Under the pieces are notes generated by a model that was not told where the DNA came from, ran no database searches, and saw nothing but the letters and a program-made list of their open reading frames with translations. 21,971 nt of DNA. It comes from Seison nebaliae. Taxonomy: Eukaryota; Rotifera; Pararotatoria; Seisonacea; Seisonidae. A program made the position numbers and the translations under genes. Position 1 is the first letter of the stretch. Every line of letters starts with the position of its first letter. This document shows, in pieces, positions 1,161-17,858 of the stretch. Location of the stretch: positions 1 through 21,971 of the forward strand of contig JALJEE010002619.1 in NCBI GenBank assembly GCA_023231475.1, read 5' to 3'.

Positions 1161-3278
1161 AGGAAAAGGTTAAATTGCCGAGTAAAACTGAAAGATTTAG
1201 TTCGCACGGAAAAGTATTCGAACTGAATGAGAAACAACCAGAAATTTGGCAATCCATAATTACTGGCGAATGTCTTATAAGCTTACACGAGGAGATTTAT
1301 CATAAAGATCATTTCAAAGTACTCGTAACAAATCAATCAACAGTTCATTAACTCTCCACTCGTCTACTATTACTTCTACTTTCAGATTATACTCAATGAG
1401 AATATCTATAAAATCTCTAAATTGACTACAGCGTCTTCTAAATTCATTTACTGGTGGAATGAGAAGGATGATATTATTTTCGGCGTTGGATTCAGTCATA
1501 GTCGAATTTGTAAAGATGTTTCATATTCTCTTTCTTTAACTCGCTCAAAATTTTCTGTAAAAGTTCTGTAATGAATTCAAGAAACTTCAAATGGAATTGG
1601 AAGACATGCCGTTCGATAATCGTTTTCGTTCTACGATGAGACAAAGAAAAACCTCCGTTGACACGAATAAACCAATGAACGAACATTTTCAGCGAACATA
1701 TTCGATGAATTTTCGAAAGAAGAGTAACGGTTATTATTTTCCGACAACCATTTTTGTGAGTTACATAAAATTCCTAAATTATTTTAAGTGAAAAAATCAA
1801 ATGAAAAAAAAGTTCTAGCACCAGCTAATGGTTGGTCAGAAACGGATGAAGGTGGATCAACGGCTGATGATACTCTCATATTATCGGAAGCAACACCAAG
1901 ACAACCGAAACCACCGATTGGTAGTGTGAGGTCAGTGAAGAACACGAAGAAGAATTCAATTTCATCTGGTCAACAATTAATCAGGAATTCTCAAGGAAGG
2001 AAATCATCAAGAAGAATAAGGAAATCATTAACATTTGAACATAATGGTGAGAATGAGAAAGCATCATTAGAAGTGAAGCAATTTACTGATATAATTCAAG
2101 AAACGTCTCGTACAGTCGGTTTAGTCGGAACTGAAACTCAGTCAACAATGTTGGGAAAATCTTCTTCGTCGAATTGTTTAGGAAATAGTTTCGTGTTTAA
2201 ACGGACACCAATTGAAGATTTGTTAATTGAAACAAGAAAAGAAAAAGATCGATATATCATCTTATATGAGGAAAGGTTAATATCATTATTAATCTAAATT
2301 GATTTCATCCGAATTTTATTTAGCGAGAAACAACGTGAGAAAAGTAACAAGATAGTGGAAGAATTAAGGAAAGAAATTAGTTCGTTGAAGGAAGTTCTCA
2401 ATCACGGATCAGGTACGATTGCGAAATGGAAAGAGAAATTCGATCAATGTAATATTAAGATTAATAATTTGCAGAATGAAGTGGATAATCAACGAAGAGA
2501 AAAAAAGAGTTATCTCCATTTTTTTCGGAATTGAAATTTAATTTGAATTAATATTATTTCAGGTCTCATTATCAAGTTGGAAGATGCTCTTATCCAAAAT
2601 AAGAAATATGAAGAACAACAATTACCAAGTGAAATAAAGATGAGTAAGAATGAATTGTCATTAGAAGAGGTGCGACAATCATTCTCTGATTCTTCTTTCG
2701 ACGATACTTTGGATGGTCAATTAAATGATACAACTTTAGTAGATAACCAGTATGATGAGATAGACAAATCGAAAGATATTGAGGAGAAAGATAAACTGAA
2801 TATAGTACGTCTACTTTCTTCGGTTTTTACGAACAAAAAAGAGTCATCGAACGATCATTATATTCAACCAGTTCCTTTCCGCGAAAAACGACAACCGATC
2901 ACCTCTCCCCAACAACAATCTCGAAATTTTGATGATCATTTCTATGAAAATCTCCCAAGGAAATCTGAACTACATGATCCGATTTATCGTAATAGTTCGG
3001 ATGTCATGCGTTCAGAGCAATCGTCATGTTGTTCACATCCAACATCTGGTGTGGATTTAGATTACAATATGTCAAATACAAACTCCAATTCAACCGAATA
3101 TGATATTTATTCTCAGATACCTGGAGATGTGAGTAATGGATTATTGAATAATTTTAATTTCTCTTCAGAAAACTCTTCCAATAAACAGAACTATGATAAT
3201 ATCATTGAACAGTTAAAGAATGTTCAAAACAACTTGAATAATATCCTCGGTCCAATCGGAGGTGAGTCAGAAGCATAA
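1157..3278 (+). CDS. Homer-like EVH1/coiled-coil scaffold protein
   Basis: Exons are 1157-1342, 1386-1517, 1564-1729, 1789-2275, 2324-2508 and 2563-3278, giving 623 residues in one frame. Residues about 12-115 match the Homer EVH1 domain: F21 and W31 sit where Homer has its ligand-pocket Phe and Trp, followed by SSKFIYWW and the IIFGVGFS strand (Homer: VYGLGFS), then a C-terminal helix. A coiled coil at about 305-405 holds LKEVLNHGSGTIAKWKEKF, like the Homer region with VKQWK. Homer proteins dock PPxxF partners such as Shank, IP3 receptors and group I mGluRs. Vertebrate Homer1 has about 366 residues. Here a Ser-rich linker separates the domains, and a roughly 200-residue low-complexity tail replaces most of the C-terminal tetramerising coil. 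All five introns start GTT. The donor of the third (1730-1788) is the least certain; 1760 also keeps the frame. The stop at 3276-3278 assumes that GTGAGT at 3262 is not used. Confidence 0.8.
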
Positions 3279-3380
3279 TTTATTTTCATTTTATCGCATT
3301 TCAAGTAGTTTATTTACTTTATTCACCACATTATTCCATTTTTGAGTTATGCTCTTTTGTTCCGATATTAATTACTAAAT

Positions 3381-3428
3381 CTTTCTTTCTTTCTCTTTCT
3401 CTTTCTTTCTCTCTCTCTCTCTCTCTCT
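3381..3428. repeat. CTTT/CT pyrimidine microsatellite
   Basis: A 48-bp run of only C and T: CTTT-type units passing into about nine CT units. Confidence 0.95.
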
Positions 3429-3553
3429 ATTTACGCTACATACGTCAGCATATTATTTTTCTGTATATCCATCATTACTTATCGAATAAAATGTCAAATT
3501 CACCACGGTTCCATCGATTTAATATTACGATGGAAACTCGTATAACTAAATAC

Positions 3554-3559
3554 AATAAA
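3554..3559 (+). promoter_or_regulatory. candidate poly(A) signal of the Homer-like gene
   Basis: An AATAAA hexamer about 275 bp after the stop. Another at 3485-3490 is equally possible. Confidence 0.35.
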
Positions 3560-3857
3560 GTGATATTTAATTTTCTGCATGATTAATGAGAAAACAAATG
3601 AATGATTTTCATCAGACATAATGAACTATCATAATAGTTTGTAAATAATCATTTTCATGATACGTCTACTGTAATTATTAACAATCAGATTATGAAACAA
3701 TAAAAATTGAAGAAAGACCTTGAATATCTGTCAAATTATTTAAAATGAAATATTCTGAGAAATATTTAATAAAAATTCATTAAATTGTTGGAAGAATGAT
3801 AAATAATGATCGGTTCAAATTTTGAGCAAGATAAAACTAAAAATAATGTGTTAATTG

Positions 3858-15753: not shown

Positions 15754-15889
15754 AAGAAATTTTAAGCTTCATCAACAAAATCTTATTTATTATTTCCCCT
15801 TTCTCCTTTCAGTTTATTTCATTCTCTTTTATGATAGTCGAACTCTAAAAAGAAGAAAATGTGGAAGGAATTCTCTTCGAATAAATATT

Positions 15890-15895
15890 TTTCAT
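15890..15895 (+). promoter_or_regulatory. candidate poly(A) signal of ACLY
   Basis: An AATAAA hexamer 137 bp after the ACLY stop and before the next gene. Confidence 0.45.
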
Positions 15896-15967
15896 TTTTA
15901 CCAAATTTTCTTCTTTTTAATTCTCGAAGTAAATGTCAGACAACATTTTCTATTAACAGATACGCTT

Positions 15968-16538
15968 ATGAAAAGTCGTCGGAAACGTCATCAGATTTCG
16001 ACGGAGAGAAATGATAAAAAAAAATTAAAATTATTTCATTTTCCTGAAAAATTACCAGACGAAATTTCCTTCCAAACTCTCACATTGAATAATATGAATA
16101 ATCAGAAGAACAATAAGAAGAATCATCAGAAGGAAATTGAAGAATCGAATTCAACTCAAAACTTTTTCATAAAAACAAAACAATCAGAAAATCAACCAAA
16201 TAATGAAATTGACGATGATTTAATGGAATTGTCTCCACCATCACATCATCATCATCCCACAGAAACAATAACAACAACAACTTCCATTAACAATTCGAAG
16301 AAGAAGGAAATATCAATTTATCGACATGTTCCATTTCGACGAGAAGAAGAAACGAAGAAAAAGTTTAATTGAGAAAATTTTATGTAGAAAAAGTAGAATG
16401 AAAAAATTTTGTGATATTCTTTGTAGAATGAGAATAAATATGTCGATTCGTTCGGATGAAGGTCAGAATAGTACTTTGAAATATTTGGAGAAGCGACGTG
16501 AGATCTTATCGAGACAAATCCGTTCTAGACGATTATAA
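15968..16538 (+). CDS. orphan basic low-complexity protein, probably two exons
   Basis: The first frame, 15968-16374, encodes a Lys/Asn-rich, low-complexity sequence with a HHHH run and Thr repeats. A second frame in another phase ends at 16538. A GTT intron at 16363-16426 (64 bp, ending TTTGTAG) joins them in phase and gives 168 residues ending KYLEKRREILSRQIRSRRL, a basic helix. I recognise no family. Highly basic composition suggests a nuclear protein, but this is only inference. Support for the splice is the shared GTT rule and frame closure, not homology. An upstream exon is possible. The stop codon sits in TTATAA, shared with the convergent PLXDC-like gene. Confidence 0.5.
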
Positions 16539-17858
16539 GCGAGCATATGGAGTTTCTTTTTTATCTGATATGTTCAATGATTGTTCACGTTCTCTTAACT
16601 AATCATATGAATGTGAATTGGATGAAGAATAAAATTTTAATAAAAATTTAACTTTCATTACCATTTGTGAAACTGGCGATCTGATGGATCGAATTGATTT
16701 CATAACGAAACAAATTCCCACCAACAATAGACCGATGAGAAGTGGAAGAATGATACGGAGGAGAATTCCATGATTTTTTGGTGGATGGTTACATCTTTCC
16801 TCATGTAGGAATTGAGATTCTTGTTCGAATAATGACGATTCGTTGTAGCATAATTTCCGATAATAACACCAATGACAATACATAGAAAGTGATTTACAAT
16901 CTCTTCTCGTTTGTTTAAATGCACAAAAATTTACATTTGGTACAAATCGAATAGATGTTTTTGAATGAATTTCTTCCAAATTCATCTTCAATTCCGAATA
17001 AATATGAATATAAGATTCTATTTGAATAATTTTCAAGAATAAAATTTAGGAAAAGAAAATTTAGAAACTTCCTCTCAAATTCTCGTGATAACCGTCGGAC
17101 AAACCAGCGACAACTTCATGTGAATCTTTTTCGATTTCTTTCACTTCTTTAGGAATCTACAAGAGATTATTTATATAAATTTAAAAGAAATTTCAACTTC
17201 TAAATAATTAAATTGGAGTATTCCTTTTTTCTCATCAATTACTAATTGGAAAGAAAATGATTCATTTGTACTTTCCAGAAGATCATCAGAATATTCGAGA
17301 TTTACACGAGACCAAGTTATACATAAATCATCATTCTGATTTCCTAAAGAAATAATATTCCAATTTTCAAATTCGTAAAACTAACGGAAATAGAAGATAT
17401 TGGATATATCAGTCGCATTGAAATCGAAGTGTGCCTTCAATGGAGCGATATATTGTGTCATTGTCATCTTCTTGTGTAGATGTTCGCCAGTCGATACGAA
17501 TCCACTTGTCGCGACGAAAATAGAAAATATCCAATGAGAATTGAAAACAAATTGGATGTTCTCGAACAACTGAAATGAACTTTCAATTATTTAATATCGA
17601 TTAATTGAGATTAAACTTCTGTCACTTTTTTGTCATTGGAAAGTTTGGAAGTTTGGAAATATTCCGCCTCGTTTGCATGATACCAAACGAAATTATCATC
17701 TTTCACGACTTTGTAATACGTATTCTCTCCGATTAATCTGTTGAGTTTTACGAAGTTTAATGACGACTAACGTACGATAAAATAAATGTAAAAGAAAACT
17801 TTGATTCCAATAAATGTACAAGAAAGATTAATATTATTTTACAAATGTTGTACATCAT
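16533..17858 (-). CDS. plexin-domain-containing protein (PLXDC/TEM7-like receptor)
   Basis: Exons on the minus strand are 17858-17800, 17737-17617, 17569-17386, 17343-17198, 17156-17069, 17017-16653 and 16598-16533, giving 342 residues. PLXDC1/2 (TEM7/TEM7R) are type I surface proteins and proposed PEDF receptors. A signal peptide (MMYNICKIILIFLVHLLES) is followed by ENTYY (human NHTYY) and the hallmark VATSGFVSTGEHLHKKM...MTQYIAPL (human VATGGFIYTGE...TATQYIAPL). Then come LCITWSRVNL (human LVVQWDHVHL), ILQFNYLEIP and VVAGLSDGY (human VKVGLSDAF). A PSI-like Cys cluster follows (C231, C240, C247, C250, C256, C275), then a TM helix at about 284-305 and a short basic tail ending PYARL. It is shorter than human PLXDC2 (about 530) because the Thr-rich stalk is missing. 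All six introns (41-62 bp) begin GTT. If the last intron (16652-16599) is not spliced, the protein ends at a TAG at 16601-16599. Confidence 0.92.

What the first reader, a model, noticed from the sequence alone, without database searches (positions are those of the whole stretch)
1343..17799. All 31 reconstructed introns use a GTT 5' splice site instead of GTA/GTG
Seen: in the six spliced genes with homologues (Homer-like, seipin, EMC10, UVSSA, ACLY, PLXDC-like; both strands) every intron begins GTT. Examples: 14927 GTTTCC, 15125 GTTAGA, 15310 GTTAAC, 3993 GTTTTT, 4331 GTTGAT, 8453 GTTAAT, and on the minus strand 17068 GTTTCT. Positions +4 to +6 and the last exonic base are not conserved; +5 G occurs in about 3 of 31. 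Acceptors are normal (TAG, CAG, AAG). Known: in almost all eukaryotes +3 is A or G and pairs with U1 snRNA, and GTRAGT is strong in short introns. Inference: this lineage has changed 5' splice-site recognition, perhaps through an altered U1 5' end, an altered U6 ACAGA box, or weak reliance on U1. Caution: the three ACLY introns were placed before I saw the rule and are fixed by homology; later ones were partly found by using it, although all six frames close to a single terminal stop.
Basis: partly seen in the sequence, partly recalled or inferred. Interest (0 to 1): 0.96.

Follow-up and report, generated by a model that had tools for sequence, protein, structure and literature searches.

The report
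GTT introns with matching mutant U1
In the rotifer Seison nebaliae almost all introns examined begin with GTT instead of GTA or GTG, and three of the four U1 RNA genes found carry the exact matching base change, so the splicing code appears to have been rewritten in this lineage.

Summary
Homologous proteins, with any GTN donor allowed, place 29 supported introns in 11 genes: 28 begin GTT, one GTA (without dropping weak rows, 31 of 33). With each of 64 triplets in turn as the only donor, GTT ranks 1st and GTA 51st. My spliced ACLY, UVSSA and U1-C proteins (11 GTT introns) are identical to deposited Seison proteins. Strong canonical donors occur only at chance level genome-wide.

Three of the four U1 snRNA genes found begin AUACUAAC instead of AUACUUAC. 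The changed base, U1 nucleotide 6, faces donor +3, so A6 pairs with +3U. The fourth gene, U1b, keeps the canonical end and an intact fold but lacks the U1-A loop sequence. U6, U5 and U2 recognition sequences are normal. My searches of the held papers showed no report of this. Best reading: a natural compensatory swap of the U1-donor +3 base pair. Not tested, for lack of data: splicing reads, U1 expression, and relatives' DNA to date the change.

The parts
14927..14973 (+). ACLY intron 1, ACG|GTTTCC..CATAG
   Evidence: spliced alignment to three homologues; deposited protein identical
15125..15165 (+). ACLY intron 2, ATT|GTTAGA..TTTAG
   Evidence: GTT 86-102 against GTC 42-54
15310..15378 (+). 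ACLY intron 3, TCG|GTTAAC..AATAG
8453..8495 (+). UVSSA gene intron 1, TCG|GTTAAT
   Evidence: gene finder; 661-aa product identical to deposited SNEBB_004723; Pfam UVSSA_N and DUF2043
9460..9518 (+). UVSSA gene intron 2, AAA|GTTCAT
9708..9749 (+). UVSSA gene intron 3, GAA|GTTATT (the gene finder without the rule chose GTA at 9696; the deposited protein agrees with GTT)
9924..9966 (+). UVSSA gene intron 4, GAA|GTTTCC
10090..10148 (+). UVSSA gene intron 5, AAA|GTTGGA
10306..10351 (+). UVSSA gene intron 6, TCC|GTTTCC
   Evidence: gene finder with GTT-only and with any GT agree, (local margin test nearly a tie with GTA); no homology support
2276..2323 (+). putative intron of the same gene, AAG|GTTAAT
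   Evidence: no homology support
2509..2562 (+). putative intron of the same gene, AGA|GTTATC
   Evidence: no homology support
   Evidence: low-penalty gene finder only
   Evidence: low-penalty gene finder only

Best explanation
In Seison nebaliae the major (U2-type) spliceosome recognises donors beginning GUU because its U1 snRNA has changed by one base. Nucleotide 6 of U1, which pairs with donor +3, is A instead of (pseudo)uridine in three of the four U1 genes found, giving an A-U pair with +3U. The donor population has shifted from +3 A/G to +3 U, while the U6, U5 and U2 recognition sequences and the AG acceptor stay normal. Shown here: the GTT rule in homology-anchored introns, the U1 base change in three separate genes, the normal U2, U5 and U6 boxes, and a canonical-ended U1b gene with a preserved fold. 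Inferred: that the A6 U1 genes supply the working U1 particle. Also inferred is the route: U1 copies duplicated, an A6 variant arose beside the old one, both donor types were tolerated for a time because +4 to +6 contribute little, AT-rich drift carried +3 to U, and U1b was left with a small or different task.
For: U1: four Rfam U1 genes at 97-113 bits, gathering score 69.5 (41 of 293 candidates were scored, so four is a lower bound). L001, L003 and L004 read AUACUA-AC and L002 reads AUACUU-AC; they lie on three contigs, L001 and L002 on the same one. Pairing register: U1 nucleotides 3-10 pair with AG/GUAAGU (PMC4383343, passages), so nucleotide 6 faces +3. Introns: 28 of 29 homology-anchored are GTT. 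On ten of those genes GTT is 1st of 64 sole donors, residual 1230 with sd 257 after a frequency fit, and AG is 1st of 16 acceptors. 11 of 11 introns in three proteins agree with deposited proteins. Whole genome: MAGGTRAGT occurs 362 times, against 349-486 expected from Markov models of 222 kb. Fifty GTT donors average 4.86 Watson-Crick pairs with A6 U1 (random GTT sites 4.34; 1 of 5000 draws reaches it); 0 of 50 pair better with U1b. Second fit: U1d (L004) also has C9 changed to U, which pairs with -1 A; -1 is A in 26 of 50 and G in 11 of 50 donors. U6 ACAGAGA, U5 GCCUUUUAC and U2 GUGUAGUA are normal.
Against: No RNA data were available: neither the introns nor expression of any U1 gene was seen in reads. 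U1b, with the canonical end, keeps its fold (two compensated pairs in the closing helix) and shares a 14-base upstream word with a U2 gene (2 of 300 shuffles share 13 or more), so it may be expressed. One homology-anchored intron is GTA. The excess of pairing over random GTT sites is the same for canonical U1 (3.86 against 3.34), since the two differ only at nucleotide 6; it supports U1 pairing at the other positions, not A6 in particular, and the A6 advantage at +3 is built in because all 50 donors are GTT. With no constraint on either end, GTT..AG is among the best choices in 10 of 22 introns and 1-8 points short of the best in the other 12. The unsupervised 64-triplet test put GTT 2nd by raw gain, behind the 2.7 times commoner ATT; per site GTG did better (99 against 79), and AG was not singled out. 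EM re-estimation diverged. The chance-level test for canonical donors had no control genome.
Confidence: 0.85

Rival explanations
1. The donors drifted to GTT in an AT-rich genome, and recognition relies on U6, U5, U1-C or intron definition rather than U1 pairing; the U1 A6 change is incidental or followed later.
For: +4 to +6 carry almost no information; introns are short, 38 of 50 at 41-59 nt, with T-rich ends (27 of the 50 came from a set filtered to 35-130 nt); U1-C has Gly32 (0 of 119 other homologues) and Asn29 (3 of 119). Entamoeba donors are GUUUGU with no U1 RNA found (PMC6018208, PMC13292270, passages).
Against: Three U1 genes changed at exactly the base facing +3 and, apart from C9U in U1d, nowhere else in the first eleven bases. 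+3 is close to fixed (28 of 29) while +4 to +6 are free, which drift does not explain.
Confidence: 0.1
2. The working U1 is U1b with the canonical end; the A6 copies are variants of minor use.
For: U1b scores 112.4 bits, has compensated pairs in its closing helix and an upstream word shared with U2a.
Against: U1b lacks the AUUGCAC loop that the A6 copies keep and has only a weaker likeness (AATTCAACT) of the downstream AATTAAACT element of the three A6 U1, U2a and U5 genes. 0 of 50 donors pair better with U1b. Canonical donors are at chance level.
Confidence: 0.03
3. The GTT rule is an artefact of intron placement by frame closure.
Against: Placement by homology with all GTN donors equal, the 64-triplet test and identity with three deposited proteins.
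Confidence: 0.01
4. These are U12-type introns, or the assembly mixes in another organism.
For: None found.
Against: Donors do not resemble RTATCC (recalled motif); U1a (A6) and U1b lie on one contig; the 29 homology-anchored introns lie on 11 contigs. The U12 search found nothing, but no control rang either, so it is not evidence.
Confidence: 0.01

Closest known systems
Canonical metazoan U1 snRNA (Rfam RF00003) and GTRAGT donors
   Same: U1 fold and an AAUUU Sm-like site (recalled motif); AUUGCAC loop in the A6 copies; GT-AG introns; normal U2, U5 and U6 recognition sequences
   Different: U1 nucleotide 6 is A in 3 of 4 genes; donor +3 is U; +5 G and -1 G are not conserved
Entamoeba histolytica introns (GUUUGU ... 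UAG)
   Same: +3 U in most donors (PMC6018208, passages)
   Different: Entamoeba has no U1 snRNA found (passages) and a conserved GUUUGU; Seison keeps U1 with a matching base change and conserves only GUU
Fritillaria borealis (larvacean) non-canonical introns
   Same: an animal whose introns departed from the normal donor genome-wide
Saccharomycotina +4 A/U switches
   Same: repeated lineage-wide change of one donor position
   Different: U1 ACUUACC was invariant wherever U1 was found (227 of 230 genomes and 9 of 10 outgroups; PMC10581693, passages); Seison changed U1 itself. The same passages cite a U6 change in Cyanidioschyzon merolae
S. specki (diplonemid; genus Sulcionema recalled) alternative U1
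   Same: one U1 gene with an altered 5' end beside a normal one; its authors suggest adaptation to degenerate donors (PMC12621601, passages)
   Different: a run of C whose pairing with that species' canonical donor logo is comparable to the normal U1; in Seison one base of U1 and one donor base changed together

Membership tests
U2-type (major) spliceosomal introns | GT at the 5' end and AG at the 3' end | tested here: met
   GTT 1st of 64 donors, AG 1st of 16 acceptors; (the unsupervised test did not single out AG)
U2-type (major) spliceosomal introns | U2, U5 and U6 snRNAs with conserved recognition sequences | tested here: met
   U6 ACAGAGA; U2 GUGUAGUA; U5 GCCUUUUAC
U2-type (major) spliceosomal introns | purine at +3 and G at +5 (GTRAGT) | tested here: not met
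   +3 T in 28 of 29; +5 G in 7 of 50
U1 snRNA (RF00003) | score above the gathering cut-off with the U1 fold | tested here: met
   97.4-112.9 bits against 69.5
U1 snRNA (RF00003) | 5' end AUACUUACCUG | tested here: not met
   met in 1 of 4 genes (L002); A6 in L001, L003 and L004; L004 also U9
U1 snRNA (RF00003) | U1-A binding loop AUUGCAC | tested here: met
   present in L001, L003 and L004, absent in L002
Entamoeba-type GUUUGU introns | U1 snRNA absent | tested here: not met
   four U1 genes
Entamoeba-type GUUUGU introns | conserved +4 U, +5 G, +6 U | tested here: not met
   +4 T 42%, +5 G 14%, +6 T 34%
U12-type introns | U12 snRNA present | tested here: inconclusive
   no match, but no control rang
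Fritillaria-type introns | most introns not GT/AG | tested here: not met
working A6 U1 particle | A6 U1 transcribed and bound to pre-mRNA | not testable with these tools
   no RNA data held

The most novel reading that the evidence does not exclude
The first known natural rewrite of the U1-donor base pair in a whole genome: one base of U1 and the +3 base of nearly every intron swapped together, with a relic canonical U1 (U1b) kept for a small or non-splicing role. U1-C residues Asn25, Gln26 and Asn29, shared with the acanthocephalan Pomphorhynchus laevis (Asn29 also in two trematodes), hint that the shift began before Seison split from Acanthocephala.
Probability: 0.8. Interest if true: 0.96.

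Novelty: new variant of a known kind. Interest (0 to 1): 0.93.

Why it matters
The U1 5' end is among the most conserved sequences of eukaryotes (recalled; invariant across the yeasts of PMC10581693), because a change there would affect every intron at once. Seison appears to have crossed that barrier, much as some lineages have reassigned codons. It makes directly testable how a whole genome can change one base pair of its splicing code, whether a second U1 served as the bridge, and how far donor recognition depends on U1 pairing beyond +3. Standard donor models would probably misjudge this genome.

Tried and rejected
Tried without use: EM re-estimation of donor motifs diverged, flooding with false introns, and any-dinucleotide mode did not recover GT. 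The unsupervised 64-triplet test was only moderately discriminating: GTT 2nd after ATT, GTG 31st, GTC 36th, GTA 44th by raw gain; per site GTT is below eight or more triplets including GTG; with GTT donors AT, AA and TT acceptors scored as high as AG or higher. The tool's backward-pattern control for MAGGTRAGT (4206) looked like strong depletion, but Markov expectation shows it is a poor control and the count is simply at chance. A bdelloid-like spliced leader (sequence recalled): no place with fewer than 2 mismatches, 100 places with 2-3, against 436 for the backward control; not pursued. The U12 search was uninformative. Prp8 lies in one 2395-codon open frame, so gave no introns. Five further ATACTWACCTG sites are not U1 genes by cmscan.

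Rows dropped before the homology count: of 27 placed introns (ACLY counted once; 25 GTT, 2 GTA) four with poor support, CCT1 483 (GTA; the stretch reads through as coding), ARPC1A 2624, POLR1A 1844 and CLPB 1731 (all three GTT). Added by hand: U1-C intron 2. Added later: five LUC7 introns, all GTT; two of their acceptors differ between two homologues. An earlier count said 28 introns were called; the right number is 27.

Literature searches, for the record: (61 papers, 20 listed; 2; 678, 20 listed; 2; 16, 15 listed; 12; 100, 15 listed; 1, not opened, a C. elegans promoter paper by its title; 40, 15 listed, none on this by title), 105 (none). Unlisted papers were not seen.

Considered and rejected: placement artefact, U12-type introns, contamination, an altered U6.
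Full report
Organism. The spliced ACLY protein of the window is 100% identical over 1116 aa to SNEBB_004724 of Seison nebaliae, a rotifer of the class Pararotatoria. 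The assembly held is 36.0 Mb in 846 contigs and the window is contig 76; the genome paper estimates about 46 Mb (PMC8351084, abstract), so it is probably incomplete.

The observation. The seven cited donors all read GTT. To avoid using the rule, I aligned homologous proteins to the DNA with a spliced aligner that treats every GT..AG pair alike. Ten genes gave 27 introns (ACLY counted once): 25 GTT, 2 GTA. Four with poor local support were set aside (one GTA, three GTT). U1-C intron 2 was added by hand, giving 24 introns: 23 GTT, 1 GTA. A LUC7 gene, with recalled human sequences as guide, gave five more, all GTT. Total 28 of 29 after dropping, 31 of 33 without. The exception is SUCLG2 intron 2, CCA|GTACAT..GTAG, local score 48 against 35 for the best GTT choice. 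If neither end is constrained, GTT..AG is among the co-optimal choices in 10 of the 22 GTT introns and 1-8 points short in the other 12, so the protein alignment alone does not always fix the exact base.

In a second test each of the 64 triplets was the only donor allowed over the ten genes. GTT won with a gain of 4084 (next TTT 3625). After a fit on triplet frequency GTT stands 1230 above expectation, next ACT 386, residual sd 257. GTA ranked 51st, GTG 41st, GTC 28th. With GTT donors, AG was the best of 16 acceptors.

A gene finder trained on open frames, all GT donors equal, found 73 introns in genes scoring 30 or more in 222 kb: 55 GTT, 7 GTA, 7 GTC, 4 GTG. Most of the non-GTT calls are near ties or odd lengths, and two are contradicted by better evidence (GTC at 15104 in ACLY, GTA at 9696 in UVSSA). 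With a margin of 3 nats and length 35-130 nt, 29 introns outside the homology set remain: 27 GTT, 1 GTC, 1 GTG. The same finder's own 64-triplet test was less clear: GTT 2nd by raw gain, GTG better per site, AG not singled out.

Deposited annotation agrees in the three proteins I could check: ACLY (3 introns), UVSSA (6) and U1-C (2). How that annotation was made is not stated in the abstract and passages I saw of the genome paper (PMC8351084).

Genome-wide, the strong canonical donor MAGGTRAGT occurs 362 times on both strands. Markov models of order 1-4 from 222 kb predict 349-486. So no sizeable class of canonical donors is visible; some tens would not be seen, and no control genome was run.

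The donor logo (50 GTT introns, 23 from homology and 27 unsupervised): +1 to +3 are fixed by choice of the set; +4, +5 and +6 carry 0.05, 0.07 and 0.03 bits; +5 G is 7 of 50. At -1 A is 26 and G 11 of 50. 38 of 50 introns are 41-59 nt; two homology-anchored ones are long, 405 nt in CCT7 and 489 nt in LUC7.

U1. Rfam finds four U1 genes (41 of 293 candidates scored). L001 (C208), L003 (C647) and L004 (C762) begin AUACUAAC; L002 (C208, 1.5 kb from L001) begins AUACUUAC. U1 nucleotides 3-10 pair with AG/GUAAGU (PMC4383343, passages), so nucleotide 6 faces +3 and A6 pairs with +3U. U1d (L004) also has C9 changed to U, matching the common -1 A. The A6 genes keep the AUUGCAC loop and share a downstream AATTAAACT element with U2a and U5; U1b lacks the loop and has only AATTCAACT downstream. 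U1b does not look like a decaying copy: its closing helix has two compensated pairs relative to the other three and its stem I has 10 of 11 pairs standard against 9 of 11 in each A6 copy (pairs taken from the Rfam structure), it scores 112.4 bits, and it shares ATTATCACACTTTT with U2a at -99 and -95.

Other parts. U6 has ACAGAGA, U5 has GCCUUUUAC, and three U2 genes have GUGUAGUA. U1-C is well conserved but has Lys28, Asn29 and Gly32. Among 119 other homologues (the 120 best listed of 936 found) Asn29 is seen in 3, one of them Pomphorhynchus laevis and two trematodes, and Gly32 in none. In human U1-C a double change at 28 and 29 fails to enhance E complex formation, and Glu32 lies near the U1 5' end (PMC4383343, passages). 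The only LUC7 locus found fits LUC7L3 better than LUC7L (433 against 286, recalled human sequences); absence of LUC7L is not shown.

Mechanism. Most likely the A6 U1 particle selects GUU donors through an A-U pair at +3. That step is inferred from sequence. GTT donors pair better with A6 U1 than random GTT sites do (4.86 against 4.34 pairs), but the same excess appears with canonical U1 (3.86 against 3.34), so this supports U1 pairing at the other positions rather than A6 itself; the case for A6 is the exact position of the change in three genes and the near-fixed +3U. Because +4 to +6 are free, the duplex is short. Other factors (U1-C, LUC7L3, intron definition in short introns) probably help; this is inference.

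Prior work. In the held papers I saw no report: searches for Seison with intron or splice, for AUACUAACCUG and for GTT-intron phrases (40 papers, 15 listed) showed nothing on this; a word search of the genome paper PMC8351084 and of PMC12256650 found no mention of a changed donor or U1. Of the two papers I saw passages of PMC10125929 and did not open PMC13161344. In Saccharomycotina the U1 pairing site was invariant wherever found (PMC10581693, passages). Nearest precedents are Entamoeba GUUUGU donors without U1 (passages), a diplonemid U1 with a C run (passages), and Fritillaria (abstract and one section).

Limits. No RNA reads, no U1 expression and no relatives' DNA were available, so expression, use and date of the change are open. 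On checking I lowered the main odds from 0.88 to 0.85, because the pairing excess is not specific to A6, and set the rivals so that the odds sum to one.

Noticed in passing
L002:1501-1664 (C208): U1b: a U1 gene with the canonical 5' end, compensated closing helix and no AUUGCAC loop, 1.5 kb from an A6 U1 gene; role unknown.
   Followed up: partly
L004:1501-1659 (C762): U1d carries a second 5'-end change, C9 to U, that would pair with the prevailing -1 A of Seison donors.
   Followed up: partly
L015 3932-3972: SUCLG2 intron 2 begins GTA (CCA|GTACAT), the only non-GTT intron among the 29 fixed by homology; could be a U1b client.
   Followed up: partly
L034 1442-1502 and following (C664): U1-C has Asn25-Gln26 and Asn29 in common with the acanthocephalan Pomphorhynchus laevis, and Gly32 found in none of 119 other homologues.
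   Followed up: yes
L051 (C540): The only LUC7 locus found resembles LUC7L3; LUC7L/LUC7L2 not found in this probably incomplete assembly.
   Followed up: partly
L037, L038, L039: All three U2 genes carry the same small insertions relative to the Rfam consensus (two bases in stem-loop I, one before GUGUAGUA).
   Followed up: no
window 19120-21969 (-): Retroelement frame with reverse transcriptase, RNase H and integrase domains at the contig end.
   Followed up: no
window 688-759 (-): tRNA-His gene, anticodon GTG.
   Followed up: no
window 5089-6960 (-): Intronless 623-aa frame with repeats; no Pfam family above its cut-off.
   Followed up: no
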